NCBI GenBank assembly: GCA_902761635.1
Contig: CACWLG010000006.1
Coordinates: 1-35,468, forward strand
Source of the DNA: Oscillospiraceae bacterium
GTDB lineage: Bacteria; Bacillota; Clostridia; Oscillospirales; Oscillospiraceae
Direction of reading: 5' to 3'
DNA: 35,468 bases
The notes under the pieces were generated by a model. That model was given only the letters and a program-made list of their open reading frames with translations, was not told where the DNA came from and made no database searches. Shown here in pieces: positions 8,588 to 32,520 of this stretch. The stretch's first letter is position 1. Each line of letters starts with the position of its first letter. A program made the position numbers and the translations under genes.

Positions 8588-8619
8588 TGCCGCAATAGGA
8601 TGAAGCTGAGGTGATGTGT

Positions 8620-9318
8620 ATGCTGGAGAGCGCGCTGCTGCTGATGATGAACGGTCTTCTCCTCATGCTCCGCATTGCGCCCGGGGAATCCTTCCCCAAG
8701 CCCCTGAGCCGGGAGGAAGAGCGGAGGTATCTGGAGCGCTGGATGGATGGAGACCTGGAGGCACGCAATAAGCTTGTCGAACACAATCTGCGGCTTGTGG
8801 CTCATATCGTAAAAAAATACTATCAGAATGACGATGCGGACGATCTGATTTCCATCGGCAGCATCGGACTGATCAAAGGGATCAATACGTATAAGCCGGA
8901 TAAAGGGGTGCGGCTTGCAACCTATGTCAGCCGCTGCATCGAAAATGAAATCCTGATGTATTTCAGGAGCCGCAAAAAAACGGCCGGGGACGTGAGTCTC
9001 TCGGAAGCGCTCGACGCGGACGGGGAGGGGAACGGCCTGCAGCTGATGGACGTGGTGGCGGCGGAAGAGGACCTGGCAGATCAGATCGGCAGCAGAGAGC
9101 AGTGCGAGAGCCTGCGGGCCGTGCTGGAGCGCTGCCTTGATCAGCGGGAGGAGCGCATCATCCGGCTGCGTTACGGGCTTGGCGGCAGAAAGCCGCTGAC
9201 CCAGCTCGAAACGGCGGAGAGATGCGGTATCAGCAGATCCTATGTATCCCGCCTTGAAAAGCGCGCCCTGGAAAAACTGCGCCATGCCCTGGACGAGGAG
9301 CGTGAAGCCGAGCGGTAG
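8620..9318 (+). CDS. sigK: Sporulation sigma factor SigK (pro-sigma-K type)
   Basis: RNA polymerase sigma-70 family factor of 232 residues. It reads through all regions: FPKPLSREEERRYLE, EARNKLVEHNLRLVAHIVKK, DDLISIGSIGLIKGI and TYVSRCIENEILMYFR (region 2), then the C-terminal helix-turn-helix with GISRSYVSRLEKRALEKL (region 4). These match the late mother-cell factor sigma-K closely. The hydrophobic N-terminus (ESALLLMMNGLLLML) resembles the roughly 20-residue pro-sequence that SpoIVFB removes in Bacillus; C. difficile SigK lacks it. The ATG at 8620 follows AGGTGAT at a suitable distance; GTG 8611 and ATG 8614 are alternatives but overlap that site. The gene is not split by a skin-type element. 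No neighbouring sporulation gene is seen. Confidence 0.9.
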   Translation: MLESALLLMMNGLLLMLRIAPGESFPKPLSREEERRYLERWMDGDLEARNKLVEHNLRLVAHIVKKYYQNDDADDLISIGSIGLIKGINTYKPDKGVRLATYVSRCIENEILMYFRSRKKTAGDVSLSEALDADGEGNGLQLMDVVAAEEDLADQIGSREQCESLRAVLERCLDQREERIIRLRYGLGGRKPLTQLETAERCGISRSYVSRLEKRALEKLRHALDEEREAER

Positions 9319-10097: not shown

Positions 10098-10778
10098 ATG
10101 CAGTACAATATTCACGGAGACAACATGCCGGTGGTGATCTGCTCGCTGGACGATGGGGAGTCCATGATCTGCGAAGCCGGCGCCATGAGCTGGATGACAC
10201 CGAACATGGAAATGGAGACAAAGAGCGGAGGCGCGGGAAAGCTCTTCGGCCGTGTCTTTTCCGGCGAGACGGCGTTTCAGAACTATTATACTGCCCGCGG
10301 CGGCAGCGGCATCATTGCCTTTGCTTCCTGCTTCCCCGGCGACATTCTGGCTGTGGAGGTCACCCCGGAAAAGCCCGTTATCATTCAGAAGAGGGCGTTC
10401 CTTGCCTGCACGACCGGCGTCCAGATGGAGGTCGTTTTCCAGAAGAAGCTGTGTACCGCAATCTTTGGCGGAGAAGGCTTCATCATGCAGAAGTTGTCCG
10501 GCAGAGGCACTGTTTTCCTTGAAATCGACGGCAGCACCATCAACTACAGCCTCAAGCCCGGACAGCAGATGCTGATCTCCACCGGACATCTGGCGATGAT
10601 GGACGAGTCGGTCACGATGGACATTCAGCAGGTCAAGGGCGTGAAGAACGTCCTCTTCGGCGGCGAGAGCCTGTTCAACACGGTTGTCACCGGACCCGGC
10701 ACCATCACCCTGCAGACGATGCCCATGACGAATCTGATTTCCGCAATTATCGCGAGGCTGCCGGGAAAGAGCGGCTGA
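10098..10778 (+). CDS. AIM24/TIGR00266 family protein
   Basis: This 226-residue protein matches the AIM24 (DUF124, TIGR00266) family pattern: an N-terminal MSWMTPNMEMETKSGG segment, the mid-region GEGFIMQKLSGRGTVFLEIDG, then ISTGHLAMMDESVTMDIQQVKG and a C-terminal VTGPGTITLQTMP. The family folds as a trimeric beta-barrel; in bacteria its biochemical role is unknown. There is no signal peptide and no membrane helix, so it is probably cytosolic. The start has AAGGAGGAAC before ATG. It is transcribed alone and ends at a large hairpin shared with the convergent acyltransferase gene. The length is normal for the family. Confidence 0.88.
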   Translation: MQYNIHGDNMPVVICSLDDGESMICEAGAMSWMTPNMEMETKSGGAGKLFGRVFSGETAFQNYYTARGGSGIIAFASCFPGDILAVEVTPEKPVIIQKRAFLACTTGVQMEVVFQKKLCTAIFGGEGFIMQKLSGRGTVFLEIDGSTINYSLKPGQQMLISTGHLAMMDESVTMDIQQVKGVKNVLFGGESLFNTVVTGPGTITLQTMPMTNLISAIIARLPGKSG

Positions 10779-10881
10779 CGCACGAACCCCGACACTACCC
10801 GCGCGATGCTCGCCGATTGCCTGGCTAAGCCGGGATAAGCGCAGCACCGCAAACATGCGCGCTGCAAAACAGCGCCCCACA

Positions 10882-10930
10882 GCAAAAGCGCCGGTCAGGT
10901 CCTTTTGGGGATCTGAACCGGCGCTTTTGC
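10882..10930. terminator. Bidirectional hairpin between convergent genes
   Basis: GCAAAAGCGCCGGT (10882-10895) pairs perfectly with ACCGGCGCTTTTGC (10917-10930). The stem continues inward through CAG/CTG with a bulged A. No clean T-run follows on either strand, though the arms contain AAAA/TTTT near their bases. It lies between the AIM24-like gene and the convergent acyltransferase-like gene and probably ends both. Confidence 0.6.
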
Positions 10931-10983
10931 GTTGACAATCGTTTGAAAGATATCTGGTATACAGAGCTTTGCCTGCCGCGCCA

Positions 10984-12306
10984 TTATTGCCCCGCTTTTT
11001 TCCTGAGAAAGAAAGCGGAGGGCGTTTTCTCTCTGGGAAGCGCGTGCTTCGTAAGCCTTTTCGGAAACGGACCCTCAGCCTGAAACGGTATCCCGAGTTC
11101 CGTCAGGACAGCTTCAAAGGCATCCGTATATTTCTTCTCATCCAGAAGCTGCATGAAGCTGAGAAAAATCCTGTCTCCCAGAGAGGATACCTCGAGCAGC
11201 ACATGGCCTTCCACGATGAACACAAAGGAATCCACATAGTCCGCGACCTCGCCCCAGTCCATCCAGCCTGTGTAGTTGGCAATAAAGGTCCCATGCTGGG
11301 CGTTTTTTCCCGCGAAGGGATCATGCTTTTTGAAATAGGTCAGCTTTTGCTTCTGCCCATGGATCGTTTCCAGCTCTTCGAGAAAGCAGAATTCCTTCCT
11401 CAGCTCCGCAAAGCTGACACTGGGATCGGTCTGCAGGGCGATCTGCCCTCTTGTCATGGTCCCGAGCTTTTCCATATCCCATTGCAGCTGCTCGCGCGTA
11501 TAATCCAAATGGACATGGCTGAGCAGATCTATATGGCTGTGCGGCATGCCGAGGCTTGCGGAGGGATTATGCGCCGTCTCTCCGCCGATGACGCGGATCT
11601 TCTCCGGGAGCACCTTGTCCAGCGCCTTTGCCGTCACAACGAGAAAGAAGGAGGCGACGCTGGAGTCGTTGTTCTTCGCAAAGGACAGGATGTCCTTCTG
11701 GGCGAATGTATAGAGCCGAAAGTTGGGCTTTCTCTTAAACGGATTATACATGCCGTTGAGATAATCCACTCCCAGAACTGCCGGCTTTTTACTGCTGTAG
11801 CGGAAGATCGGCTGCTCTGTGCCCAGCATCTCAAGCGTCGGCTCCTCGTCCTCCCCCGGGAGCAGGGGGCTGTCCGGCTTGCGTATCGCCGGGGCGTTCG
11901 GCACGACATGGTATCTCTCTATGATGTACTGATACACCGTGGTCATAACCCAGGGCTGCGCGCCTCTGCCGCCGCACAGGGCATGGCTGATATAGAAGTT
12001 GATCTCCCGGCCTTCACACTGTACAAACAGCAAATGCCCGTTCACAGCACGGCTTCCAAGCCTGGGAAGCTGTCTTGACCTCCCGAGGATCACGACTTCC
12101 TCCGGATTCGAAGCAAGGACATAGCCGCCATCTTCATCCAGGCCGACCCTGACAGCAAAATAGGGATATCGCTTGATAGCAATATTCACGGCGGACTTGA
12201 GCTTTTTCACATCCACCTTTTCCTTCATCACGACGCGAATACGCATAATCATGGCGAAAACGGATTCGTCCTTATATAGTTTGAATGTATTGAGGCTGTA
12301 TTTCAT
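10984..12306 (-). CDS. CAT/condensation-superfamily acyltransferase-like protein (paralogue A)
   Basis: This 440-residue cytosolic protein has the look of the chloramphenicol acetyltransferase/condensation/alcohol acyltransferase fold. Residues 46-57 are RYPYFAVRVGLD, 84-92 include GSRAVNGHL, and the active-site-like motif is SHALCGG (His108, Cys111). This corresponds to HHxxxDG (HHAVCDG in CAT) with the first His replaced by Ser and the Asp by Gly. The catalytic His is kept. A DWG segment near the C-terminus (YTGWMDWG) recalls the DFGWG-type structural motif. It is a paralogue of the gene at 22283, with gap-free alignment over the first 120 residues. It starts after AAGGAGAC, 82 nt behind the methyltransferase-STAS gene, and is probably co-transcribed. 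The substrate is unknown. Confidence 0.75.
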   Translation of the reverse strand: MKYSLNTFKLYKDESVFAMIMRIRVVMKEKVDVKKLKSAVNIAIKRYPYFAVRVGLDEDGGYVLASNPEEVVILGRSRQLPRLGSRAVNGHLLFVQCEGREINFYISHALCGGRGAQPWVMTTVYQYIIERYHVVPNAPAIRKPDSPLLPGEDEEPTLEMLGTEQPIFRYSSKKPAVLGVDYLNGMYNPFKRKPNFRLYTFAQKDILSFAKNNDSSVASFFLVVTAKALDKVLPEKIRVIGGETAHNPSASLGMPHSHIDLLSHVHLDYTREQLQWDMEKLGTMTRGQIALQTDPSVSFAELRKEFCFLEELETIHGQKQKLTYFKKHDPFAGKNAQHGTFIANYTGWMDWGEVADYVDSFVFIVEGHVLLEVSSLGDRIFLSFMQLLDEKKYTDAFEAVLTELGIPFQAEGPFPKRLTKHALPREKTPSAFFLRKKAGQ

Positions 12307-12388
12307 GCACTTGTCTCCTTACGTATTGCAGCTTGCCAAATCAGCAGAGATGGACCGTTTTTTGCATAAGCAGCAAGGACCCGGCATA

Positions 12389-13660
12389 TCAGTGGAAAAT
12401 GGAATCAAAGCCGGTCTGTTCCAGGATTTCCCTCACGGTCTCGTTTTCGCCGTGAAGGGAAACCCCGCCTTTTAAGGCCTTGTGCATGATCAGCAGCACG
12501 CGCAGACCGGCAGAGGAGATATACTCGAGGCGGCTGCAATCCAGCTCCACGGCATCCGGTGTCTGCTCTGCCTTTGCCTTTTCAAAGAAAGACAGCAGGC
12601 TCGGCGCGGTGATCGTATCCAGCCGACCCGTCAGCGCCAGGGACAGCGTGCCCGACTGCATGGAGGCGTCGGCATGAAATCCCCTCGTTTCCGTGGAAGG
12701 AAGCGCCACCGCCGCCCCGCTTGGGGTGATTTTCCAGAAAGCGCAATGCTTCATGCCCTCACATATCGCGGCGGCCTGCTCGGGGGTAACTCTGTCCAGG
12801 GAATCCAGCTTCGGCATGTTTTCGCCGACATTCACACGCTCGGCCTTCAAACCGTGCTTTGCAAGAAAAACCATCGCTTTTCTGATACTGCCTTCCATAT
12901 CCGCAGGAGAGGCAATCAGCGCGTTCTTTCCGATCTCCACGTCGGACTTGTCCTTCGTCTGCTGCGTCGCATTCCTCATGATCTCCATGAAGCGATCACC
13001 CACCAGTGCGCGCATGACGAGGACATACTGAAGGGAGCATTCCACATCGGCCGTGTACCAGCAGCCGCCCTTTTTCTCCAGGATGCGGCGGATATTGTCG
13101 CAAAGCGCACCGGCCTCAGAATCGGTAAAGTACATCAGCAGGCCCTCGGTGGTGATCGTGACAGGGCTGTCGATATCCTCGAGCGCCTTTTCCAGCGAGG
13201 CGTAGTTGGTCGCGTCTACCTCCCGGAAGCGGGCAAGCTCCCGCTGCTCTGCCGGGATCAGCGAAAGGATTTTCTCCGCTGCTTCCCGAATGACCACCGG
13301 AAGATCCAGACCGTAATAGGCCAGGCCCTTCCTTGCAAATTCGATCGCCCGCGGCGTATATCCGCAGGGCATATCCACCAGCGTACAGCCGGATTTCTCC
13401 GCCAGACACGCCATCGTGCGGTAACGGCATTCCATCATGATCGTGCCGCCCAGCACCTGTTCCGGCGACGCCTTGGTGTTCGCGCTGTTTTGTGTCGCCT
13501 CCAGCGTAAGGCCCAAGCTCTTCGCCAGCGCTGCCGCATCCCTGTCACCGTTTGCGGCCAACTGAAACAGCGTCATCTTGGCTGTGTTGAACACGGGATT
13601 CACTTTTTCAAGAAGCGTATAATCAGCAGCGGTGTTTTCCCAGGACCAGGTATTTTCCAT
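12389..13660 (-). CDS. Leucine carboxyl methyltransferase-like domain fused to a STAS domain
   Basis: This 423-residue protein has two parts. Residues about 1-320 resemble the leucine carboxyl methyltransferase (LCM/PPM) family of SAM-dependent enzymes: SAM-site loop VDMPCGYTPR (95-104), LDLP (118-121), then EGLLMYF (172-178). The last 100 residues are a STAS (anti-sigma factor antagonist) domain: LSLALTGRLDT, then VELDCSRLEYISSAGLRVLL, with the usual phosphorylation-site serines at 382/383. STAS proteins are phosphorylated by RsbW/SpoIIAB-type kinases and dephosphorylated by SpoIIE-type phosphatases; exactly such a phosphatase is divergently encoded at 14051. No kinase is in view. The start follows GAGGAGA. 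The methyl acceptor is unknown; some LCM relatives methylate small molecules rather than PP2A-like tails. Confidence 0.85.
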   Translation of the reverse strand: MENTWSWENTAADYTLLEKVNPVFNTAKMTLFQLAANGDRDAAALAKSLGLTLEATQNSANTKASPEQVLGGTIMMECRYRTMACLAEKSGCTLVDMPCGYTPRAIEFARKGLAYYGLDLPVVIREAAEKILSLIPAEQRELARFREVDATNYASLEKALEDIDSPVTITTEGLLMYFTDSEAGALCDNIRRILEKKGGCWYTADVECSLQYVLVMRALVGDRFMEIMRNATQQTKDKSDVEIGKNALIASPADMEGSIRKAMVFLAKHGLKAERVNVGENMPKLDSLDRVTPEQAAAICEGMKHCAFWKITPSGAAVALPSTETRGFHADASMQSGTLSLALTGRLDTITAPSLLSFFEKAKAEQTPDAVELDCSRLEYISSAGLRVLLIMHKALKGGVSLHGENETVREILEQTGFDSIFH

Positions 13661-13700
13661 AATAATCTCTCCTCAAGCTTCTGTTTGCATATCCTGCGGA

Positions 13701-13722
13701 CTGCGGAAACTGTTCTCCGCAG
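13701..13722 (-). other. Leader hairpin before the methyltransferase-STAS gene
   Basis: CTGCGGA (13701-13707) and TCCGCAG (13716-13722) form a 7-bp stem with an 8-nt loop. It lies inside the predicted roughly 75-nt leader of the minus-strand gene. No T-run follows, so it is not an obvious terminator. It may stabilise the transcript or affect translation. Confidence 0.35.
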
Positions 13723-13743
13723 CCTCGGATTGAATCTTGCTGT

Positions 13744-13772
13744 ATTATACATGGCCGGTGGGTATAAAGCAA
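13744..13772 (-). promoter_or_regulatory. Sigma-A promoter of the methyltransferase-STAS operon
   Basis: On the minus strand: TTGCTT (13767-13772), a 17-bp spacer and a perfect TATAAT (13744-13749). Transcription would start near 13737 and run through the STAS fusion gene and probably the acyltransferase-like gene behind it. Confidence 0.65.
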
Positions 13773-13990
13773 TACCGGGTATGGATACAGAATAATGAAA
13801 ACACTTCTTTACCGGAGGGCGGCGCACACCCGGCTCTTGTATGGAAACGCAAGCAGGCGGTATTGTTCTGGTCCCTGCCTGAAACAGGAAAGCGAAGATG
13901 ATAAGATGACCGGGATCATCTCGAGACGATGCTCCGTCAATGTGTACAAAAGCAAAGTGTAAACAAACTGTGACTTTGCACCGCGCACTC
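13773..13990. other. Divergent intergenic region, no gene seen
   Basis: This is the core of the 390-nt gap between the minus-strand STAS operon and the plus-strand phosphatase gene. I see no convincing ORF or RNA gene. It contains a dyad, GCAAAGT (13952-13958) with ACTTTGC (13973-13979), just upstream of the phosphatase promoter, which is a reasonable operator candidate. The rest has no clear structure. Confidence 0.4.
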
Positions 13991-14019
13991 TGGAAATCCA
14001 GTGATTTATCGTGTACAAT
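13990..14019 (+). promoter_or_regulatory. Promoter of the SpoIIE-type phosphatase with an overlapping dyad
   Basis: TGGAAA (13991-13996), a 17-bp spacer and TACAAT (14014-14019). The perfect dyad CTGGAAATCCAG (13990-14001) covers the -35 region. A regulator binding there would block RNA polymerase. The predicted leader is about 25 nt, so the ATG at 14051 is favoured over the upstream in-frame ATG at 13940. Confidence 0.5.
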
Positions 14020-14050
14020 AGAAAAACAATGCCGATGTGGGGGCTGGAAT

Positions 14051-16249
14051 ATGAAAAAAGTGAGAAACATTGTGATCGGCGGCATCCAGCAGAAGGTTTT
14101 CAACCTTGTGGTTGTCACCGTCCTTTTGATGATGGCGGCCTATACTGCCGTGGTCATTCATCAGTCGGGCTCGCTGACCCATCTGATGGAAGAGACGAAT
14201 GAGCAGCAGAGACAGTCCATCAGCGCCATTTCCCGGGGAACGATGGATTCTGTGCTGGATGCAAGCTTTACGGAGAGCACACAGATGCAGGCATACATCG
14301 CTGACAGCTACTTCGGCGAGGCTGAGGATGTTGTGCGCATGCTGGCCGATTATGCAGAGCATCTCTATGCCGATCCCGGGGCTTACGGCCTGCGGGCCGT
14401 TTCACTGCCGGACAGGTCAAAGGACGGGGAGATCAGCGCACAGCTTCTGACAGAGGAGGGCGTTGACCTCAACGATCCCCGGATTCGTACAGAGCTTGGT
14501 CTGATCGGGAACATGACGGACATGATGATCGCCCTTTACCGCAACGCGAATGTGGATTCCTGCTATGTCGCCCTGCCGAGCGGCGTGATGCTGCTGGTGG
14601 ATGACCATGCTGCCACCAAATTTGACGAGGCAGGGAATCTGGTCTCTATCCCCATTCGGGAGAGAGCCTGGTATACCGGCGCTGTGGAAAAAGGCGAGCT
14701 GTACTATACCGATGTGACCAGAGATCATTTCACCGGAGAAATCAGCGTGATGTGCGCCCTGCCGGTTTACCATGAGGGCAGGCTCGCGGCGGTGATCGGC
14801 GCGGATCTGTTCCTGAATGACATGGCGGCGGCAGTCTCCGCCTCTGTCAGGGACGGCAGCTTTGTCTGCATCGTCAATGAGAAAGGACACGTGGTCTTCT
14901 CTCCGCAGGCGGAAGGAGCTTTCCGTGCGCTGCCGGACGAGCAGGCACAGGACCTGCGCGAATCAGACGATAAAGAGCTCGCCGAATTTGTGAAGACCGC
15001 GCTGAAAGAAAACACCGGCGTCCGCACGGCAACAATCAGCGGAGAGGGCTACTATATGACAGGCTCGCCGATCTCCAGAGTCGACTGGGCAATCATCGGC
15101 GTCGTGTCCAAGGAGGCTATGGACCAGCCGACCATCACACTGGAGGCGCAGTATGACGATATCCAGAGGGGCGCGCTTGAGCGTTTTCGGGCCGGCATCG
15201 GGATGGCAAAGGCCACGATCATCGTCCTGATCCTCATCGTTTTTGCGGTCTGTGCTGCGGCGGCGCTTGTTGTCTCCGCGCGGATCGTAAAGCCGCTTGA
15301 GGCAATCACGAAACGCGTAAGCTCCCTGGGCGGCGACGATCTGCAGTTCTTCGTCGAAAAGGAATATCGCACCGGGGACGAGATCGAGATCCTGGCCGAA
15401 TCGTTTGCCGCGCTCTCGGCCAAAACACTGCAATACGTGGATCAGGTGAAGCGGGTCACGGCAGAGAAGGAGCGCATCGGCGCCGAGCTTAAGATGGCCA
15501 CCGAGATCCAGGCAAGCCAGCTCCCGCGGCTGTTCCCGCCGTTCCCGACACGCACCGAGTTTGACATCTTTGCTTCCATGGACCCTGCCAAGGAGGTCGG
15601 CGGCGACTTTTACGACTTCTTTCTGGTGGATGATGACCACATTGCGCTGGTCATGGCCGACGTCTCCGGCAAGGGTGTGCCGGCAGCGCTGTTTATGATG
15701 GTGTCGCGGGTGCTGATCAAGTCCCGTCTCCAGAGCGGCGAAACGCCGAGCGAGGCCCTGAAAAACGTGAACAATCAGCTCTGTGAGGGCAATAATGCAG
15801 GCTTTTTCGTTACGGTGTGGCTTGCGGTATTGGAGATTTCCACCGGAAAAGGGATCGCTGCCAACGCCGGACATGAGCATCCGGCCCTGCGCCGCGCGAA
15901 CGGCCCCTATGAGCTGGTCACGTACCGTCATTCCGTGGCCGTGGCGGCAATGGAGGGTGTGCCGTTCAAGCAGCACGAATTCCTGCTTCATCCGGGGGAC
16001 AGCGTCTTTGTCTATACCGACGGTGTGGCGGAGGCCACCAATGAGAAGAAAGAGCTTTTCGGCACGGACAGAATGCTGGCGGCACTCAACAAAGATCCGG
16101 ACGCCATTCCCCAGCAGGTTTTGAAGAATGTGCAGGAGGACATTGACGCTTTCGTGGCGGGCGCGGAACAGTTTGACGACATCACGATGCTGTGCCTGAA
16201 GTATAACGGGCCGAGAAAGCGGGCACATGCAAACCATACGGCAAATTAA
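14051..16249 (+). CDS. Cache-HAMP-SpoIIE (PP2C) membrane phosphatase, RsbU/RsbP-like
   Basis: This 732-residue sensor phosphatase has a membrane helix at about 16-36, a large extracellular Cache-type sensor (about 40-380), a second helix (about 386-410), HAMP (about 411-465), a short coiled coil, and a SpoIIE/PP2C domain (about 495-715). Metal-site motifs are intact: EVGGDFYDFF (about 514), ADVSGKGVPAALFM (about 535), NAGHEHPAL, YTDGVAEATN (about 654) and FDDITML (about 708). Family members dephosphorylate the serine of STAS anti-anti-sigma proteins. The divergent gene at 12389-13660 encodes a STAS fusion and is the obvious substrate candidate, although this is inference. The ATG at 14051 is chosen because the first helix follows at once and the promoter lies just upstream; the Shine-Dalgarno (GGGGGCTGGA) is weak. 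The external ligand is unknown. Confidence 0.92.
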   Translation: MKKVRNIVIGGIQQKVFNLVVVTVLLMMAAYTAVVIHQSGSLTHLMEETNEQQRQSISAISRGTMDSVLDASFTESTQMQAYIADSYFGEAEDVVRMLADYAEHLYADPGAYGLRAVSLPDRSKDGEISAQLLTEEGVDLNDPRIRTELGLIGNMTDMMIALYRNANVDSCYVALPSGVMLLVDDHAATKFDEAGNLVSIPIRERAWYTGAVEKGELYYTDVTRDHFTGEISVMCALPVYHEGRLAAVIGADLFLNDMAAAVSASVRDGSFVCIVNEKGHVVFSPQAEGAFRALPDEQAQDLRESDDKELAEFVKTALKENTGVRTATISGEGYYMTGSPISRVDWAIIGVVSKEAMDQPTITLEAQYDDIQRGALERFRAGIGMAKATIIVLILIVFAVCAAAALVVSARIVKPLEAITKRVSSLGGDDLQFFVEKEYRTGDEIEILAESFAALSAKTLQYVDQVKRVTAEKERIGAELKMATEIQASQLPRLFPPFPTRTEFDIFASMDPAKEVGGDFYDFFLVDDDHIALVMADVSGKGVPAALFMMVSRVLIKSRLQSGETPSEALKNVNNQLCEGNNAGFFVTVWLAVLEISTGKGIAANAGHEHPALRRANGPYELVTYRHSVAVAAMEGVPFKQHEFLLHPGDSVFVYTDGVAEATNEKKELFGTDRMLAALNKDPDAIPQQVLKNVQEDIDAFVAGAEQFDDITMLCLKYNGPRKRAHANHTAN

Positions 16250-16264
16250 AACCGGATTCCCAAA

Positions 16265-16302
16265 AGCAAAGGCTGCTGCCGCATCGGCGGCAGTCTTTTG
16301 CT
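16265..16302 (+). terminator. Terminator of the phosphatase gene
   Basis: AGCAAAGGCTGCTGCCG (16265-16281) pairs with CGGCGGCAGTCTTTTGCT (16285-16302), with a G-U wobble and one bulge, around a CAT loop. The T-rich segment lies inside the 3' arm (CTTTTGCT). It starts 16 nt after the stop codon. Confidence 0.65.
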
Positions 16303-16325
16303 GTGTGCGCTCGTCGATACCGTAC

Positions 16326-16354
16326 TTGAATTCGTAACATTTTGATGCTATAAT
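16326..16354 (+). promoter_or_regulatory. Sigma-A promoter of the VanY-type peptidase
   Basis: TTGAAT (16326-16331), a 17-bp spacer and an extended TGC-TATAAT (-10 at 16349-16354). The leader would be about 60 nt. Confidence 0.75.
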
Positions 16355-16419
16355 TCAGCTTCAAGTCAAAGCTTTTACAGAGAAACGCTGTATGCTCGGG
16401 AGAAGGGAGGTCACGCATA

Positions 16420-17253
16420 ATGAGAAAAAAGACCGTTTGGATTCTCACAATGACTGCCCTGTGTCTTGTGCTCTATACCATTGTGGCATCGAGGGTCAAG
16501 ATCGGCAACACCATCATCTTCGGCGGCAATGAGGGGGCCTTTATCCATACAGACAGCATGGACTTTGCCGACAACAATGTTACCCCAACACCGGAGCCGA
16601 CGGAGGATATCTGGCCCAAGCTCACCACAAAGGATTTTGAGGACAACACCTATCTGCAGATCGTCAACAACAACAATCTGCTCTCCTCCGCTTACGAACC
16701 GGAGGTCTCCAAAATCGAGAGAACGCGCTATATGATGTACAGCACGGAGTATATGCCCTATCTGGATGCCTTCCTGGATGCGATCGAGGAGGCCGGCTTC
16801 GACTACTTTATTGCCGGCGCCTATCGCTCCTATTCCTATCAGGCGCATGTGTACAATTCCAAGGCCAGCCAGATCGCCTATGAGATGGCCGGCGGCAAGC
16901 AGGTGGATTATACCGACCCGATCTATCAGGAGGCCGCCGAGAAAGCAAAATCCATCACCGCCCCCGCAGGCGCCAGTGAACACCAGCTTGGCCTGTGCGT
17001 GGATATTCTCGACAAAAACCGTTCCCGCCTTGTGTATGAGGATATGAATCAGGAGCTTTTTGCCTGGCTGGATGCCCACTGCGCCGAATACGGCTTCATT
17101 AAGCGCTATCCTACCCGCAAGCTTCTGCTGACCGGCTGGGATGAGCCCTGGCACTATCGTTATGTGGGGCGGGAAGCCGCTGCCTTTATTATGGAGCAGG
17201 GACTCTGCTATGAAGAGTTTTATGCCCATTACTTCCCGGATTTTGAGTATTAA
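16420..17253 (+). CDS. VanY-type D-alanyl-D-alanine carboxypeptidase (M15B)
   Basis: This 277-residue extracytoplasmic zinc peptidase trims the terminal D-Ala of peptidoglycan stem peptides. An uncleaved-looking signal anchor (about 7-24) is followed by a low-complexity linker with TPTPEPTED and then the catalytic domain. The M15B motifs are visible: AGAYRSYSYQ substrate/fold motif, then GASEHQLGLCVDI carrying SxHxxGxxxD (Zn-ligand His about 188 and Asp about 195), and EPWHYRYVG (Glu about 242, Zn-ligand His about 245). It starts after GGGAGG. It stands alone, with no VanR/S or vanHAX genes nearby, so housekeeping wall maturation is likelier than glycopeptide resistance. Confidence 0.9.
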   Translation: MRKKTVWILTMTALCLVLYTIVASRVKIGNTIIFGGNEGAFIHTDSMDFADNNVTPTPEPTEDIWPKLTTKDFEDNTYLQIVNNNNLLSSAYEPEVSKIERTRYMMYSTEYMPYLDAFLDAIEEAGFDYFIAGAYRSYSYQAHVYNSKASQIAYEMAGGKQVDYTDPIYQEAAEKAKSITAPAGASEHQLGLCVDILDKNRSRLVYEDMNQELFAWLDAHCAEYGFIKRYPTRKLLLTGWDEPWHYRYVGREAAAFIMEQGLCYEEFYAHYFPDFEY

Positions 17254-17255
17254 GG

Positions 17256-17282
17256 AGAAAGAGCCCTGCCGGGGCTCTTTCT
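17256..17282 (+). terminator. Terminator of the VanY-type gene
   Basis: AGAAAGAGCCC (17256-17266) pairs with GGGCTCTTTCT (17272-17282) around a 5-nt loop, starting 3 nt after the stop codon. The 3' arm holds the T-rich segment. It separates this gene from the rimP operon promoter. Confidence 0.75.
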
Positions 17283-17316
17283 GACTGTAAAAACTGAAAC
17301 AATCCGCAAAAAACAC

Positions 17317-17345
17317 TTGCATTATGCGCTGCTTCGTGCTATTAT
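17317..17345 (+). promoter_or_regulatory. Sigma-A promoter of the rimP-nusA-infB operon
   Basis: TTGCAT (17317-17322), a 17-bp spacer and an extended TGC-TATTAT (-10 at 17340-17345). Transcription would begin near 17352, upstream of a complete intrinsic terminator in the leader. Confidence 0.7.
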
Positions 17346-17370
17346 CATACAGTAAGGTTTTGGTATTGTC

Positions 17371-17397
17371 AGAGTGGGTTTCGACCCACTCTTTTTT
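17371..17397 (+). promoter_or_regulatory. UUCG-capped terminator in the rimP leader (putative attenuator)
   Basis: AGAGTGGGT (17371-17379) pairs with ACCCACTCT (17384-17392) around TTCG, followed by T6 (17392-17397). It lies 20 nt after the predicted transcription start and 43 nt before rimP. Because promoter and upstream terminator both precede it, it must act within the operon leader. NusA stimulates intrinsic termination, so autoregulation by the operon's own product is a plausible inference. Confidence 0.65.
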
Positions 17398-17439
17398 GTG
17401 AGACTTTTTCACAAGATAAAAATGGTACGGTGAGGAAAA

Positions 17440-17895
17440 ATGAGTAAGATTACAGACAGAGTTTCGGCGCTGGCAAAGCCCATCGTGGAAGAAGAGGGAT
17501 GCAGTCTTTGGGATGTGGAATATGCGCGCGAGGCGGGCACCTGGTATTTGCGGATTTTTGTGGATAAAGAGGGCGGCCTCAGCATCGACGACTGCGAGCG
17601 GATCAGCCGCAGGCTCGACCCCCTGCTGGATGAGGAGGACCCCATACCCGACAGCTATGTCTTTGAAGTCGGCTCTGCCGGAGCAGAACGGGAATTGAAG
17701 CGCCCGCAGGATTATGAGCAGTTTATGGGCAGCGAGGTCGAGGTTCGGCTCTACCAGCCGCGAAACGGCAGCAAAAGCTTTGTCGGCACATTGAAGGCTT
17801 ACGAAGACGGCAATGTGACGATTGAAAACGGCGGCAACGAAATGCGCTTTGAAAAGGGCATGATTGCCCTGGTCAGGCTGCATGTATCTATATAA
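17440..17895 (+). CDS. rimP: Ribosome maturation factor RimP
   Basis: A 151-residue 30S subunit maturation factor. Family features are visible: VEEEGCSLWDVEYAREAGTW, LRIFVDKEGGLSIDDCERISR, then the AGAEREL segment that follows SYVFEVGS, and a C-terminal SH3-like barrel (VRLYQ to FEKGMIALVRLHV). The length is normal. It is first in the conserved Firmicutes operon rimP-nusA-ylxR-ylxQ-infB. The ATG follows GTGAGG. A 14-bp tandem duplication at the 3' end includes its stop codon. Confidence 0.95.
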   Translation: MSKITDRVSALAKPIVEEEGCSLWDVEYAREAGTWYLRIFVDKEGGLSIDDCERISRRLDPLLDEEDPIPDSYVFEVGSAGAERELKRPQDYEQFMGSEVEVRLYQPRNGSKSFVGTLKAYEDGNVTIENGGNEMRFEKGMIALVRLHVSI

Positions 17896-22219: not shown

Positions 22220-22282
22220 ACCTACCAAATCGGAAAGAAGACAGGACCGATACAGCGGACGACAAAAGAAAGGATGCTGAAA

Positions 22283-23554
22283 ATGGCTCACAATCCCGAT
22301 ATCTATTTACTGTACGAATACATGGAAAAGGTGCCCTTCACTGTGAGAATGAAGGTCTGCCTCGACGCTCCGGTCGATGCGGAACTTCTGACGGAGGCGG
22401 CGCAGGAAGCGATCGGGAGGCTGCCATATTTCAGCGTCAAGGTCGGGCTGGACGCGGGGGAGAACTACACCCTGGAACATAACGACAGGCCAGTCGCGGT
22501 CCTGCCGGAAAAGGACGAGAGACTGACGCTCGGCAGCGAAGCGGTAAACGGCCATCTGGTCGCGATCACCTACCGGGACGACTGCGTCTGGTTCAATTAT
22601 TCTCATACCTTCTGCGGCGCGATGGGCGGCCTGTTCTGGGTCAAGGCGACTGTGTATCAATACATGACGAAAAAGTACGGGCCGTTGGAGGCGCCGAAGG
22701 ACATCAAGCTGCCGGGTACGCCCGTGACGGAGGGCGAGCTTTATTTCCCCGATGCAGACAAACTGCCTGACGACGAGCCGATCTCCCGCTACGAGGGCGG
22801 CGACTGCAATCTCCAGCTGCCCAGAATGCTCAAATACCTGTTCAATCCCTTCGCCAGAGATTGCTATTACTATCAGATCGAAATCCCCGCCGGAGACTTC
22901 ATGGAATACGCGGCCGGGATCGACGGAAGCCCGAACACCATCTTGACGGCGATGATGTTCAAGGTGTGCTCCCACCTGTTCAAGGAGAAGGAGGGGACCT
23001 TCCTCTCCGGAAGAGTTTCGGCAGATTACCGCAAGGATATCGGCGCCAATGCGTCCTACCGTGATTTCGTCCGCTTTATCCATGTGAAATATGAGTGGAG
23101 CATGAAGGATGAATCCGTTCAGAAGCTCAACATGCGCGCGAGGGGCGCGCTTATCAGGCAGAACCAGCCGGAGCTGAGCTATGAGCGGTTCAGAAGGCTG
23201 GACAAGGCACATCAGGGCATCGACGCGCAGCCGAACCTGAAAGCCAAAAAGAAGTTTGCCTCTCAAAACAGCACCTTCCGCAGCGACCCCCGGGACACCT
23301 ATACCATCAGCTATGTCGGGCAGACCGATTGGGGCGGGATGGAGGCGCATATTAAGAGCTTCTATACCATCACCGACGGCGACCTGATGATTGAGGTGAA
23401 CGCTCTGAAGGACATCTTCTGCATCACCTTCCAGCTTATCAACAAAGACCCAAAGCCCCTGGATCTGTTCTGCGAGCTGCTGAAGCAGGAGGGCCTTCCT
23501 TACAAGGTATCGGAGCGCTATACACGCCATATGCCGAAAATCAAGCTGCCCTGA
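22283..23554 (+). CDS. CAT/condensation-superfamily acyltransferase-like protein (paralogue B)
   Basis: A 423-residue cytosolic protein paralogous to the gene at 10984. With the ATG at 22283, residues 46-57 (RLPYFSVKVGLD), 84-92 (GSEAVNGHL) and the active-site-like motif SHTFCGA (His108, Cys111) have exactly the same numbering as in paralogue A. The upstream ATG at 22274 adds three residues and lacks a ribosome site, whereas GAAAGGA fits 22283. The motif corresponds to HHxxxDG with Ser for the first His and Gly for Asp; the general-base His is retained. YVGQTDWG near the C-terminus matches YTGWMDWG in paralogue A. Product and substrate are unknown. It stands alone with a strong promoter. Confidence 0.78.
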   Translation: MAHNPDIYLLYEYMEKVPFTVRMKVCLDAPVDAELLTEAAQEAIGRLPYFSVKVGLDAGENYTLEHNDRPVAVLPEKDERLTLGSEAVNGHLVAITYRDDCVWFNYSHTFCGAMGGLFWVKATVYQYMTKKYGPLEAPKDIKLPGTPVTEGELYFPDADKLPDDEPISRYEGGDCNLQLPRMLKYLFNPFARDCYYYQIEIPAGDFMEYAAGIDGSPNTILTAMMFKVCSHLFKEKEGTFLSGRVSADYRKDIGANASYRDFVRFIHVKYEWSMKDESVQKLNMRARGALIRQNQPELSYERFRRLDKAHQGIDAQPNLKAKKKFASQNSTFRSDPRDTYTISYVGQTDWGGMEAHIKSFYTITDGDLMIEVNALKDIFCITFQLINKDPKPLDLFCELLKQEGLPYKVSERYTRHMPKIKLP

Positions 23555-29755: not shown

Positions 29756-30952
29756 ATGAAAGATCTCAAATATTTGGCCTGGTTTGAGAATCTCCTGCAG
29801 GAGGCGAACAACGAGCTCGTTGCCGCGGCCAGAGAGCAGGGGAAAAAATGCGTCTCCTATATCTGTGAAAATTCGCCTGAGCCCCTCCTGAATCTCGACG
29901 GCTGCTTCTCGGTGCGTCTGCGCGCGCCGCGTACAGGCTCCATGGAGATGGCAACCTATTACATGACCAGCTTCCTCTGCGAATACAGCCGCGCTCTGCT
30001 CGAGCGCGCCATTGAGGGCGGATACAATTTTTCAGACTGCCTCATCGCGCCGGACGGCTGCAGTATGATCAACCGCTGCGCGGAAAACATGGAGCTGCTG
30101 CACGCCATGGAAAAGGGGAAGGAGCACTTCTTCTATGAGCACATGGAGATCCCCATGAAGGCGGATGACAATGGCCTGAACCTCTATGTGCTCCAGTGCA
30201 AAAACCATATCCTCACCCCACTGAAGGAAAACTTCGGCATTGATATCTCCGATGCCGCCATCCGCAGGGCAGTGGCGGAACACAACCGCGTCTGCGAGCT
30301 GATCCGCGCCATCGGCGAATTCAGGAAGGGCGACAGACCCACGATCACCGGCTACGAGTACAGCGTGATCACCATGGCGACCTATGCTGCGCCCAAGGCC
30401 ATGCTGATCGAGAAGCTGGAGGAGACGCTGGAAGAACTCAGAACGCGTGAGCCGGATGCGAAGAACGCCTTCCGCGTGCGCGTGGCACTGGTTGGCTCGG
30501 AGATTGACGATCCTGATTTCATCAAGCTTGTGGAGGATACGGGTGCCTTTGTCTGCGTGGACCGTTATTGCTACGGCTCCTTCCCCGGCAGAGACCCCAT
30601 CCATCTCACAGACGAGGAGGACGCGCTGACCCAGATCTGCCGCCAGTATATGGTCCGCGGCCAGTGCCCGCGCTATATGAACACCGCAAAGCTCCTGGAG
30701 CGGCGCAGCTATGTGGATGAGCTTGCAAAGGAATATGCCGCCGACGGTATCCTGTATGAGCAGGTCAAATTCTGTGACCCGTGGGCTTATGACAGAATGC
30801 TCGGCTCCCACATCATGCGCAACGAGTACGGCTATCCCGTGCTCTCCATAGACAGACCCTATGCTGTCTCCGGCATCGGCCAGCTGCGCACCCGCATCCA
30901 GGCATTCATTGAGAGCGTGGAAATCAAGAAGATTCATGGAGGTTCACGATGA
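29756..30952 (+). CDS. 2-hydroxyacyl-CoA dehydratase-family subunit (HgdB/BcrB-like), small
   Basis: A 398-residue protein of the 2-hydroxyacyl-CoA dehydratase/benzoyl-CoA reductase/double-cubane superfamily. Candidate cluster cysteines are C32 and C37 (KKCVSYICENSPEPLL), C95, C102 (PDGCSMINRCAEN, the place of the usual CD/CxxxxR element), C108, and the FCDPWAYDR motif near residue 340. The C-terminal SIDRPYAVSGIGQLRTRIQAFIE is typical of the D-component. Known relatives need an ATP-driven activator (archerase); none is seen here. It follows hypA by 29 nt with a weak GGGAAGGG site. It probably forms a heterodimer with the next subunit. Substrate unknown. Confidence 0.87.
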   Translation: MKDLKYLAWFENLLQEANNELVAAAREQGKKCVSYICENSPEPLLNLDGCFSVRLRAPRTGSMEMATYYMTSFLCEYSRALLERAIEGGYNFSDCLIAPDGCSMINRCAENMELLHAMEKGKEHFFYEHMEIPMKADDNGLNLYVLQCKNHILTPLKENFGIDISDAAIRRAVAEHNRVCELIRAIGEFRKGDRPTITGYEYSVITMATYAAPKAMLIEKLEETLEELRTREPDAKNAFRVRVALVGSEIDDPDFIKLVEDTGAFVCVDRYCYGSFPGRDPIHLTDEEDALTQICRQYMVRGQCPRYMNTAKLLERRSYVDELAKEYAADGILYEQVKFCDPWAYDRMLGSHIMRNEYGYPVLSIDRPYAVSGIGQLRTRIQAFIESVEIKKIHGGSR

Positions 30953-32520
30953 AAGACGAAAACAGAATCGGAACACAGAATCTCGGCAGCCTCTATACAA
31001 ACGGCCGGGTGAGAAGCCGCCGTGAGTGGCGCGGCATTGTGGACACGGCCTATGACTTTTCCCGCTGGCTTCACAACTGGATCACCATGTTCCGCGTCGT
31101 ACTGGTAAAGCCCCGGAATATCAAGGCCATGTTCCGTTACCGCTGGATGGCAAGCTATCTCGCGGTGCCGATGATGATCGACCGCCACACCCAGGGCCTG
31201 CGCAACGAGCATCTGCGGATCTGCCACGAAGAGCAGGATCTCATCGTGGAGGACGTGGCAAAGCTTCTGGACAAGCTGTTCCGCGGCGACCGCCGGATCG
31301 GCAACGACAGGGAGTTTTCCAGCAAGGTCGTGCTTGTGGATGAAAACGAGATGCAGTCTGTGATGATGGGCTTTCCGACCGTCGTCCCGCTCAGCCGCGA
31401 GATCGCCTCCACCTATATTCCCGTGCTGCTCAACCAGCGCGCTGCCCTGCATTATATCGACGTGGCGCAGGAGTATGGCCTCGCGGGCGATGTCTGCCCG
31501 ATGCCCGAGGCGGAGGCCGGTGTGTCCATCGACGATGACGCGCCTGTTCTCGGCTGCTGCGCCGTGCAGTGCAACACCACCTGCGACGGCTCCCTGATGG
31601 GCAACAGCGTCATTTCCAAGCGCCTGGAGCTGGAGGATGGGATCCCGGTGTTCCAGCTTGCCACACCGCTGCGTCACAGAGAGGACGACGTGCAGGAGTA
31701 CGCGGCGCAGGAGATCCGCAACGCCATCGCCTTTATCGAGGAGCATACCGGCGAAAAGTGGGACTGGACGCACTACTTTGAGTGCGCAAAGCGCGTGAAC
31801 TACGCCACGAAGTGCCGCCTCGAATGGCTGGAGATAAACCGCACGGACTATCCGCAGGTCTTCGGCTCCAACCTCGCTCTCTATACCGAGACAAACTATA
31901 TGGCCATCAGCGGCCGTCTGAAGGTCTTTGAGGATGCCGACCGCAAGATCACCGCTCTCGCGGAAAAGGCGTTCAAAAAGAAAAGAATGGCTGCCAACGA
32001 ATATCGCCACCGCGCCATTATCTGGGGCGTGCAGTCCCATTATTATATGGACTTCCTGGTCTGGCTGCTCAACTGCTGGGGCATCGTGCCGCTGACGGAT
32101 ATGCTCTCCATGGTCAACACCCGGATGATCGCCGAGACCGACACGCCGGAAAATCGTGAGCAGGCAATCTATGACATCGCGTGGCTGACGGAGAATATGA
32201 TCATGCGCAACCGCACCCACGGCGGCTACAAGGTGCTGCTGGATGAGCTGTGGGAGTTCGTGGAGGAATTCAACGCCGATATGGTCATTCTCTGGGAGCA
32301 TATGAGCTGCAAGGCTCTCGACGGCATGCACGGCATGTTTGAGGAGAAGGCCCGCGAAAAAGGGATCCACCTTGTCTGGGTCTCCCATGACCTGTTTGAT
32401 CCCCGCGTGATCTCCCGTCAGGGTGTCCGCGACCAGATCAACAGCTACATGCGCACGGTCATGAACGAGGAGCCTGTCGATCCTTCGCTTGAAATACTCA
32501 ACGATGTGGAATCCTGGTAA
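30949..32520 (+). CDS. 2-hydroxyacyl-CoA dehydratase-family subunit (HgdA-like), large
   Basis: A 523-residue subunit of the same superfamily as its upstream neighbour, overlapping it by 4 nt with GGAGGT before the ATG. It has an unusual Cys-rich loop, GCCAVQCNTTCDGS, with C203, C204, C208 and C212; the last Cys sits in the CD element. VCPMPEAE lies just upstream. The C-terminus reads VILWEHMSCKALDGMHGMFEEK, then the ISRQGVRDQINSYMRTVM helix typical of the family. It is longer than usual alpha subunits because of the N-terminal roughly 110 residues (RSRREWRGIVDTAYDFSRWL onward). The extra cysteines suggest either a larger cluster, as in double-cubane proteins, or a disulfide. Function is inferred from family only. 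Confidence 0.87.
   Translation: MKDENRIGTQNLGSLYTNGRVRSRREWRGIVDTAYDFSRWLHNWITMFRVVLVKPRNIKAMFRYRWMASYLAVPMMIDRHTQGLRNEHLRICHEEQDLIVEDVAKLLDKLFRGDRRIGNDREFSSKVVLVDENEMQSVMMGFPTVVPLSREIASTYIPVLLNQRAALHYIDVAQEYGLAGDVCPMPEAEAGVSIDDDAPVLGCCAVQCNTTCDGSLMGNSVISKRLELEDGIPVFQLATPLRHREDDVQEYAAQEIRNAIAFIEEHTGEKWDWTHYFECAKRVNYATKCRLEWLEINRTDYPQVFGSNLALYTETNYMAISGRLKVFEDADRKITALAEKAFKKKRMAANEYRHRAIIWGVQSHYYMDFLVWLLNCWGIVPLTDMLSMVNTRMIAETDTPENREQAIYDIAWLTENMIMRNRTHGGYKVLLDELWEFVEEFNADMVILWEHMSCKALDGMHGMFEEKAREKGIHLVWVSHDLFDPRVISRQGVRDQINSYMRTVMNEEPVDPSLEILNDVESW

What the first reader, a model, noticed from the sequence alone, without database searches (positions are those of the whole stretch)
12389..16249. 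Methyltransferase-STAS fusion paired divergently with a Cache-HAMP-SpoIIE phosphatase
A SAM-dependent LCM-type methyltransferase carries a C-terminal STAS domain with intact phospho-serines. Its divergent neighbour is a membrane sensor phosphatase of the type that dephosphorylates STAS domains. This suggests a sensor pathway in which an outside signal switches a methyltransferase rather than a sigma factor. The kinase is missing locally. I know of no described system of this design.
Basis: partly seen in the sequence, partly recalled or inferred. Interest (0 to 1): 0.75.

Follow-up and report, generated by a model that had tools for sequence, protein, structure and literature searches.

The report
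Methyltransferase carrying a phospho-switch domain
A gut bacterium carries a protein that looks like a methyl-group-transferring enzyme with a built-in phosphorylation switch of the kind normally used to control sigma factors; the fusion recurs in many gut bacteria and may plug metabolism into a known signalling circuit, but the sensor gene beside it here is not a fixed partner.

Summary

The exact pair is not conserved. Four of the six nearest relatives keep a condensation-fold gene beside the methyltransferase; none shows this phosphatase. Its nearest homologues sit elsewhere, once in a genome without a detected methyltransferase-STAS. Yet unlike SpoIIE phosphatases recur next door (5 of 141 adjacent ORFs, about 0.3 expected), and two further loci hold SpoIIE, an RsbW-type kinase domain and STAS nearby. 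Carriers also fuse STAS or RsbW-type domains to an AMP-ligase, an APH kinase and MATE and SDF transporters.

Best reading: an enzyme plugged into a partner switch, kinase supplied in trans. Phosphorylation, activity and substrate are untested. A new variant of a known kind.

The parts
12389..13660 (-). Methyltransferase-STAS fusion, 423 aa
12716..13660 (-). LCM-fold SAM methyltransferase domain (residues 1-315); R79, C99-G100-Y101, D119, D149-A150-T151, E172 invariant in 86 sequences
12395..12664 (-). STAS domain (residues 333-422)
12512..12514 (-). Codon of Ser383, aligned with SpoIIAA Ser58 (phospho-site); Ser in 83 of 86 homologues
10984..12306 (-). Condensation/CoA-acyltransferase-fold protein, 440 aa, 82 bp downstream on the same strand, AAGGAG ahead of its ATG; likely same operon (inferred)
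14051..16249 (+). dCache-HAMP-SpoIIE phosphatase (open frame from 13940; probable start 14051)
14534..15100 (+). dCache_1 sensor domain, similar to PctA/PctC
15629..16204 (+). SpoIIE/PPM phosphatase domain
13661..14050 (.). Divergent intergenic region with a promoter-like site on + (13991-14019); consensus match only

Best explanation
The protein is an LCM-type SAM-dependent methyltransferase, probably acting on a small molecule or a carboxylate, whose C-terminal STAS domain makes it a direct client of a partner-switching circuit. An RsbW-type kinase domain encoded elsewhere would bind and phosphorylate Ser383; SpoIIE phosphatases such as the membrane dCache-HAMP-SpoIIE protein next door would remove the phosphate when an outside signal is sensed. 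The phosphorylation state would decide whether the STAS domain is bound by an RsbW-type domain, and so whether the methyltransferase is active, sequestered, or docked to a partner carrying an RsbW-type domain. SHOWN: the fusion, both folds (by model), conserved motifs, a phospho-site position conserved across phyla, recurrent SpoIIE adjacency. INFERRED: phosphorylation, which kinase and phosphatase, the effect on activity, the substrate. The neighbouring phosphatase is only one candidate among several in this genome.
Against: The window pair is not conserved in near relatives. 71 of 78 loci show no SpoIIE in the DNA held, and the Pfam tallies of neighbours look mostly like unrelated genes. In the five adjacent cases no RsbW-like gene was seen in the DNA held; the two loci with one (L081, L049) have SpoIIE two or three ORFs away. 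Three Selenomonas-type homologues have Arg at position 383. HATPase_c_2 rings in 12 of 14 control genomes and SpoIIE in 5 of 14, so their presence in 50 of 50 carriers says little, and no matched non-carriers were searched. No biochemical evidence exists.
Confidence: 0.5

Rival explanations
1. Docking, not enzyme switching: the STAS domain is a plug that binds degenerate RsbW-type domains fused to other pathway proteins (AMP-ligase, MATE or SDF transporter). Phosphorylation sets where the methyltransferase sits, not its catalytic rate, and the divergent SpoIIE gene is incidental.
For: AMP-ligases with a HATPase_c_2 tail (24-25 bits, below the 27.4 cut-off) near the fusion in L049, L050 and L051; a MATE with such a tail (22.5 bits) directly downstream in L077; SDF symporters in L049, L061 and L064 with an N-domain that hhalign relates to RsbW (94.6%) though Pfam does not see it. 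By eye the N-box Asn is missing in the AMP-ligase and SDF versions.
Against: Several MATE versions keep an intact-looking N-box. No interaction was tested. Co-location with the fusion is seen in few loci.
Confidence: 0.25
2. The STAS domain is the output: methyltransferase-STAS is an anti-sigma antagonist whose methyltransferase domain senses SAM or a metabolite, and the target is a sigma factor freed from RsbW.
For: STAS similarity to SpoIIAA and RsbV. A SigK-type sigma gene lies about 3 kb away in the window (8611-9318), and that synteny is kept in L040. STAS, RsbW-like and sigma genes lie together on C2.
Against: SAM-site motif residues are invariant in 86 of 86. No sigma-factor family is among the 25 most frequent families shown for either neighbour tally (the rarer ones were not shown).
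Confidence: 0.12
3. Constitutive structural or ligand-binding STAS (as in SulP transporters or MlaB); the divergent phosphatase is a chance neighbour.
For: The exact pair is not conserved. Three homologues lack Ser383. Most loci lack a SpoIIE neighbour.
Against: Near-universal SSAGLR motif, repeated SpoIIE adjacency on separate branches, and another enzyme in the same genome fused to STAS (AMP-ligase).
Confidence: 0.13

Closest known systems
SigmaSsdA/SipA of Actinoplanes missouriensis (PMC10733313; abstract, outline and passages seen)
   Same: An effector with a C-terminal STAS domain is controlled by an RsbW-like domain that binds that STAS domain.
   Different: The effector there is a sigma factor, here an LCM-fold methyltransferase; no SpoIIE phosphatase turned up in the passages seen.
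SiaABCD of Pseudomonas aeruginosa (PMC7647112; abstract and outline seen)
   Same: A PP2C-type phosphatase (SiaA) and a kinase set the phosphorylation of an anti-sigma-antagonist-like protein (SiaC) in a pathway with a diguanylate cyclase (SiaD). SiaA is the best NCBIfam match of the window phosphatase (E 3e-17).
   Different: SiaC is separate from the enzyme and phosphorylated on Thr68; the window phosphatase scores 62.4 against the SiaA cut-off of 700.
SpoIIAA/SpoIIAB/SpoIIE and RsbV/RsbW/RsbU (PMC11418112, PMC8256260; passages seen)
   Same: STAS domain with the aligned phospho-serine; PPM phosphatase of the same Pfam family.
   Different: Stand-alone STAS proteins controlling sigma factors; kinase usually encoded beside them (recalled).
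LCMT1/PPM1 and mycobacterial ML2640/Rv0731c LCM methyltransferases
   Different: Sequence identity 13-17%; no STAS domain known to me in them; substrate here unknown.
RsbM/RsbK of Bacillus cereus (PMC4574943; abstract and outline seen)
   Same: A methyltransferase acting within a sigma-B circuit.
   Different: RsbM methylates the sensor kinase RsbK; no fusion to STAS is mentioned in what I saw.
Rv1364c of Mycobacterium tuberculosis (PDB 3ke6)
   Same: Best PDB sequence match of the phosphatase domain (E 1.6e-11); a multidomain partner-switch protein (domain make-up recalled).
   Different: No methyltransferase, as far as recalled.

Membership tests
LCM methyltransferases (PF04072) | Pfam gathering score | tested here: not met
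   18.3 bits against 22.3 for the window protein; 11 of 48 relatives match at E 1e-3 or better
LCM methyltransferases (PF04072) | LCM fold | tested here: met
LCM methyltransferases (PF04072) | Conserved SAM-site motif residues | tested here: met
   R79, G100, D119, D149, E172 in 86 of 86; their match to LCMT1 SAM contacts is recalled, not computed
LCM methyltransferases (PF04072) | Carboxyl O-methylation | not testable with these tools
   needs an enzyme assay
STAS anti-sigma antagonists | STAS domain over cut-off | tested here: met
   PF01740 48.4 against 22.6 bits; 48 of 48 relatives at E 1e-3 or better
STAS anti-sigma antagonists | TIGR00377 anti-sigma factor antagonist cut-off | tested here: not met
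   45.5 against 53.45 bits
STAS anti-sigma antagonists | Phosphorylatable Ser/Thr at the SpoIIAA Ser58 position | tested here: met
   Ser383 in 83 of 86; Arg in L101, L102, L103
SpoIIE/PPM serine phosphatases | PF07228 domain | tested here: met
   152.9 against 25 bits
SiaA equivalogs (NF038263) | NCBIfam cut-off | tested here: not met
   62.4 against 700 bits
Complete partner-switch module at one locus | RsbW-like kinase next to phosphatase and STAS | tested here: not met
   no RsbW-like hit in the window; a stand-alone RsbW-like gene lies on contig C5; met in L081
Dedicated phosphatase/methyltransferase-STAS pair | Co-conservation in relatives | tested here: not met
dCache_1 AI-2 receptors (CahR, PMC9540692, passages seen) | Residues matching PctA R126, W128, Y144, D146, D173 | tested here: not met
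   in the PctA alignment I read R, W, D, D as matched but Y144 as falling on Thr; positions counted by me

The most novel reading that the evidence does not exclude
Gut Clostridia, Coriobacteriia and relatives have turned partner switching into a general wiring system for metabolism: STAS plugs are fused to enzymes (LCM methyltransferase, AMP-ligase, APH-type kinase) and RsbW-type sockets, some apparently catalytically dead, are fused to transporters and enzymes (MATE, SDF, AMP-ligase). SpoIIE sensor phosphatases then decide which metabolic proteins assemble or work, with no sigma factor or change in transcription needed.
Probability: 0.35. Interest if true: 0.85.

Novelty: new variant of a known kind. 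Interest (0 to 1): 0.62.

Why it matters
Partner switching is usually read as a way to free sigma factors; STAS-to-enzyme fusions conserved across phyla would make it a direct post-translational control of metabolism. The 50 carrier genomes tested hold a mean of 7.2 and up to 25 SpoIIE phosphatase genes, whose outputs are, to my knowledge, mostly unknown. This family supplies a concrete, testable output with a defined residue (Ser383) and a defined enzyme fold, and some carriers are isolates by their record titles (for instance Butyrivibrio sp. YAB3001).

Tried and rejected
Rejected: that the two window genes are a fixed pair. Rejected: that the window dCache meets the published five-residue AI-2 receptor test. 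Set aside as uninformative: SpoIIE and HATPase_c_2 in all 50 carrier genomes as proof of a link; the tool's own controls ring in 5 and 12 of 14, and no matched non-carriers were searched. Dead ends: no Rfam match in 10500-17500. The VIA-align listing was filled mostly by methyltransferases, so absence of other families there says nothing. The RNA paper PMC11109978 (passages) mentions a STAS gene and a methyltransferase gene apart, not fused.

Literature: ten searches of the open-access PMC library listed no paper that I recognised, by title or start of abstract, as describing a methyltransferase-STAS fusion or a MATE, AMP-ligase or APH fusion to these domains. One search held 711 papers and listed 10. 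Subscription journals are mostly missing from the library.

Limits of counts: the 80 loci are the best 80 of 226 confirmed stretches, themselves found by two short patterns. Two of the 80 gave no selected methyltransferase ORF: L041 (frame broken) and L104 (missed by my gene caller; one search shows a 431-aa frame with STAS), so neighbour counts rest on 78. Gene calls are longest-ORF guesses and include antisense shadow ORFs. The Pfam tally covered 109 of 141 adjacent ORFs plus two SpoIIE genes from farther out that I added by hand (L081, L049), so its 7 SpoIIE include those two, and it showed only 25 of 64 and 25 of 73 families. Rows left out of the 86-row alignment: L059 and L040 (cut by contig ends), copies of the same genes (L007, L008, L028, L029, L032, L033), fragments under 385 aa, L041 and L104. 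The tree is the quick one, as the careful search did not finish, and it warns of long branches. Of ten regions fetched to look for MATE fusions six proteins were Pfam-scanned and all six had MatE and HATPase_c_2; L132 was not scanned, L123 gave no hit, L128 and L131 were SpoIIE-HATPase proteins. In one search the MATE query was wrongly chosen. One search ended in an error after its listing.
Full report
WHAT IS THERE. The window holds, on the minus strand, a 423-aa ORF (12389-13660) followed 82 bp on by a 440-aa ORF (10984-12306), and divergently a 769-aa open frame (13940-16249). Pfam finds STAS in the first (8.6e-13) with a sub-threshold LCM match, and SpoIIE (1.3e-44), dCache_1 (3.9e-17) and a weak HAMP in the third. 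The 440-aa protein has no Pfam match at E 1 or better.

THE FAMILY. A pattern scan of one genome for each of 84,980 species gave 226 confirmed relatives; the best 80 loci were kept. By record taxonomy they are Bacillota (69), Actinomycetota (5), Synergistota (3), Spirochaetota (1) and 2 unplaced, and 59 of 80 titles bear names that I take as ruminant-gut series. On the quick tree, four of the Actinomycetota rows nest inside Bacillota, which suggests horizontal transfer. In the window's genus the gene is patchy: 5 of 61 genomes, own included, had a match, and none of 38 from other genera of the order. STAS is fused in all 84 full-length ORFs, from 77 of the 80 loci. In an 86-row alignment R79, C99, G100, Y101, D119, D149, A150, T151, E172, S382, A384 and G385 are invariant and S383 is Ser in 83; the three exceptions are Selenomonas-type proteins with Arg. 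HMMER aligns S383 to Ser58 of SpoIIAA, the known phospho-site (PMC11418112, passages seen).

THE NEIGHBOUR. The window phosphatase is not a fixed partner. tblastn of its sensor region finds nothing in the loci of the near relatives L034-L038 and L040; L034, L035 and L040 show under 2 kb upstream, L038 4.5 kb, L036 and L037 8 kb. Its nearest homologues (77% identical) lie in G027 on contig C40, while that genome's methyltransferase-STAS is on C1, and in G037, where one search found no methyltransferase-STAS (assembly given as 75% complete). Both sit beside what look, by sequence, like phosphosugar genes. Among the same six relatives the condensation-fold gene follows the methyltransferase in four (L034, L035, L037, L040); L036 ends before it and L038 has another gene there. 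In L040 the synteny goes on through AIM24 to sigK and further. A paralogous methyltransferase-STAS on contig C48 also has a condensation-fold gene next to it, here upstream.

YET SpoIIE RECURS. Among 78 loci, SpoIIE genes are immediate neighbours in five (L047, L085, L093, L094, L109) and two or three ORFs away in two more (L049, L081): 5 of 141 adjacent ORFs against 2 of 456 outer ORFs, Fisher p 0.0096. Carrier genomes hold a mean of 7.2 SpoIIE genes (362 in 50 genomes), so about 0.3 adjacent hits would be expected if genomes have some 3,000 genes (assumed). The eight linked rows, window included, need six changes on the tree; L081 with L085 and L093 with L094 are sisters. The phosphatases carry different sensor parts, among them a Reg_prop propeller in L047. 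L081 also holds a 136-aa RsbW-like protein and a STAS protein, and L049 a SpoIIE-HATPase_c_2 protein and a STAS protein; L085 has a STAS gene just before its SpoIIE gene. This pattern suggests several sensor phosphatases feeding one kind of output, but 71 of 78 loci show none.

KINASE. None was found in the window. The own genome has two strong stand-alone RsbW-like genes, on C2 (with a STAS and a sigma gene, SpoIIA-like) and on C5 (in a cluster MATE-HATPase_c_2, SpoIIE, RsbW-like, STAS). All 50 carrier genomes tested have HATPase_c_2 and SpoIIE hits, but HATPase_c_2 also rings in 12 of the 14 control genomes and SpoIIE in 5, and no matched non-carriers were searched, so this is weak.

WIDER PATTERN. 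Pfam shows in the own genome STAS-AMP-ligase (C17), STAS-APH (C33, STAS 20.1 bits, below cut-off) and three MATE proteins with HATPase_c_2 (one just below cut-off). In other carriers, six of six scanned 580-611-aa proteins, picked for frame length, are MATE-HATPase_c_2 over both cut-offs; four further fetched regions gave one unscanned candidate, one without a hit and two SpoIIE-HATPase proteins. AMP-ligases with a HATPase_c_2 tail slightly below cut-off occur in L049, L050 and L051; in L077 the fusion is followed by a MATE with such a tail (below cut-off) and a STAS-APH protein. SDF symporters in L049, L061 and L064 carry an N-domain that hhalign relates to RsbW (94.6%). One own-genome row runs NRPS (A-PCP-C), a MATE-like protein (by eye), STAS, SpoIIE.

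MECHANISM. The most economical reading is that the STAS domain is the regulated plug of the methyltransferase: an RsbW-type domain binds and phosphorylates it, a SpoIIE phosphatase resets it. [quoted passage not shown] SiaABCD is a partner switch tied to an enzyme, a diguanylate cyclase (PMC7647112). What phosphorylation does to the methyltransferase, and what it methylates, is unknown. The condensation-fold, AMP-ligase and exporter genes seen near some copies hint at a small acyl or peptidyl product (inference).

VERDICT. Observation confirmed; interpretation partly supported; a new variant of partner switching. The strongest novelty lies in the family-wide STAS fusion and the surrounding set of STAS- and RsbW-tagged metabolic proteins, not in the divergent pair.

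Noticed in passing
L077:97-4650: Methyltransferase-STAS followed by a MATE transporter with a C-terminal HATPase_c_2 match (below Pfam cut-off) and a STAS-APH kinase fusion.
   Followed up: partly
L049:1910-15843: Coriobacterial locus with an ABC ATPase whose tail looks RsbW-like by eye (not seen by Pfam), SpoIIE-HATPase, STAS, methyltransferase-STAS, PAP2, AMP-ligase-HATPase, condensation-fold-like protein and SDF symporter with an RsbW-like N-domain.
   Followed up: partly
L114:5652-7574 (own genome, contig C17): N-terminal STAS fused to an AMP-ligase, with a C39-peptidase ABC exporter gene nearby (L114:1050-3248).
   Followed up: partly
L116:2725-9276 (own genome, contig C62): Gene row NRPS (adenylation, carrier, condensation), MATE-like (by eye), STAS, SpoIIE.
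   Followed up: no
L101, L102, L103: Selenomonas-type homologues with Arg at the phospho-site (ISRAG); in the genome of L103 the best HATPase_c_2 hit is weak (1.6e-9), but not in those of L101 and L102.
   Followed up: no
L031:1-3570: A divergent methyltransferase-STAS between a condensation-domain protein with a weak cNMP-binding tail and a carrier-protein-like ORF (the latter by eye).
   Followed up: no
window 22274-23554: A second ORF related to the condensation-fold gene (tblastn 26-28% identity to its relatives) lies after infB, without Pfam match.
   Followed up: no
G000 contig C96 (L007): A second, cut copy (91% identical) of the methyltransferase-STAS and its condensation-fold gene; a strain variant or duplication in an assembly given as 4.71% contaminated.
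   Followed up: no
L057, L058, L064, L065, L066, L083, L108: A second, divergent methyltransferase-STAS (404-412 aa) lies convergently beside the first; a PAP2 gene is nearby in five of these seven loci.
   Followed up: no
window 29756-32520 and 33430-35181: Two HGD-D (2-hydroxyglutaryl-CoA dehydratase D-component) ORFs in a row, and a PAS-GGDEF-EAL protein.
   Followed up: no
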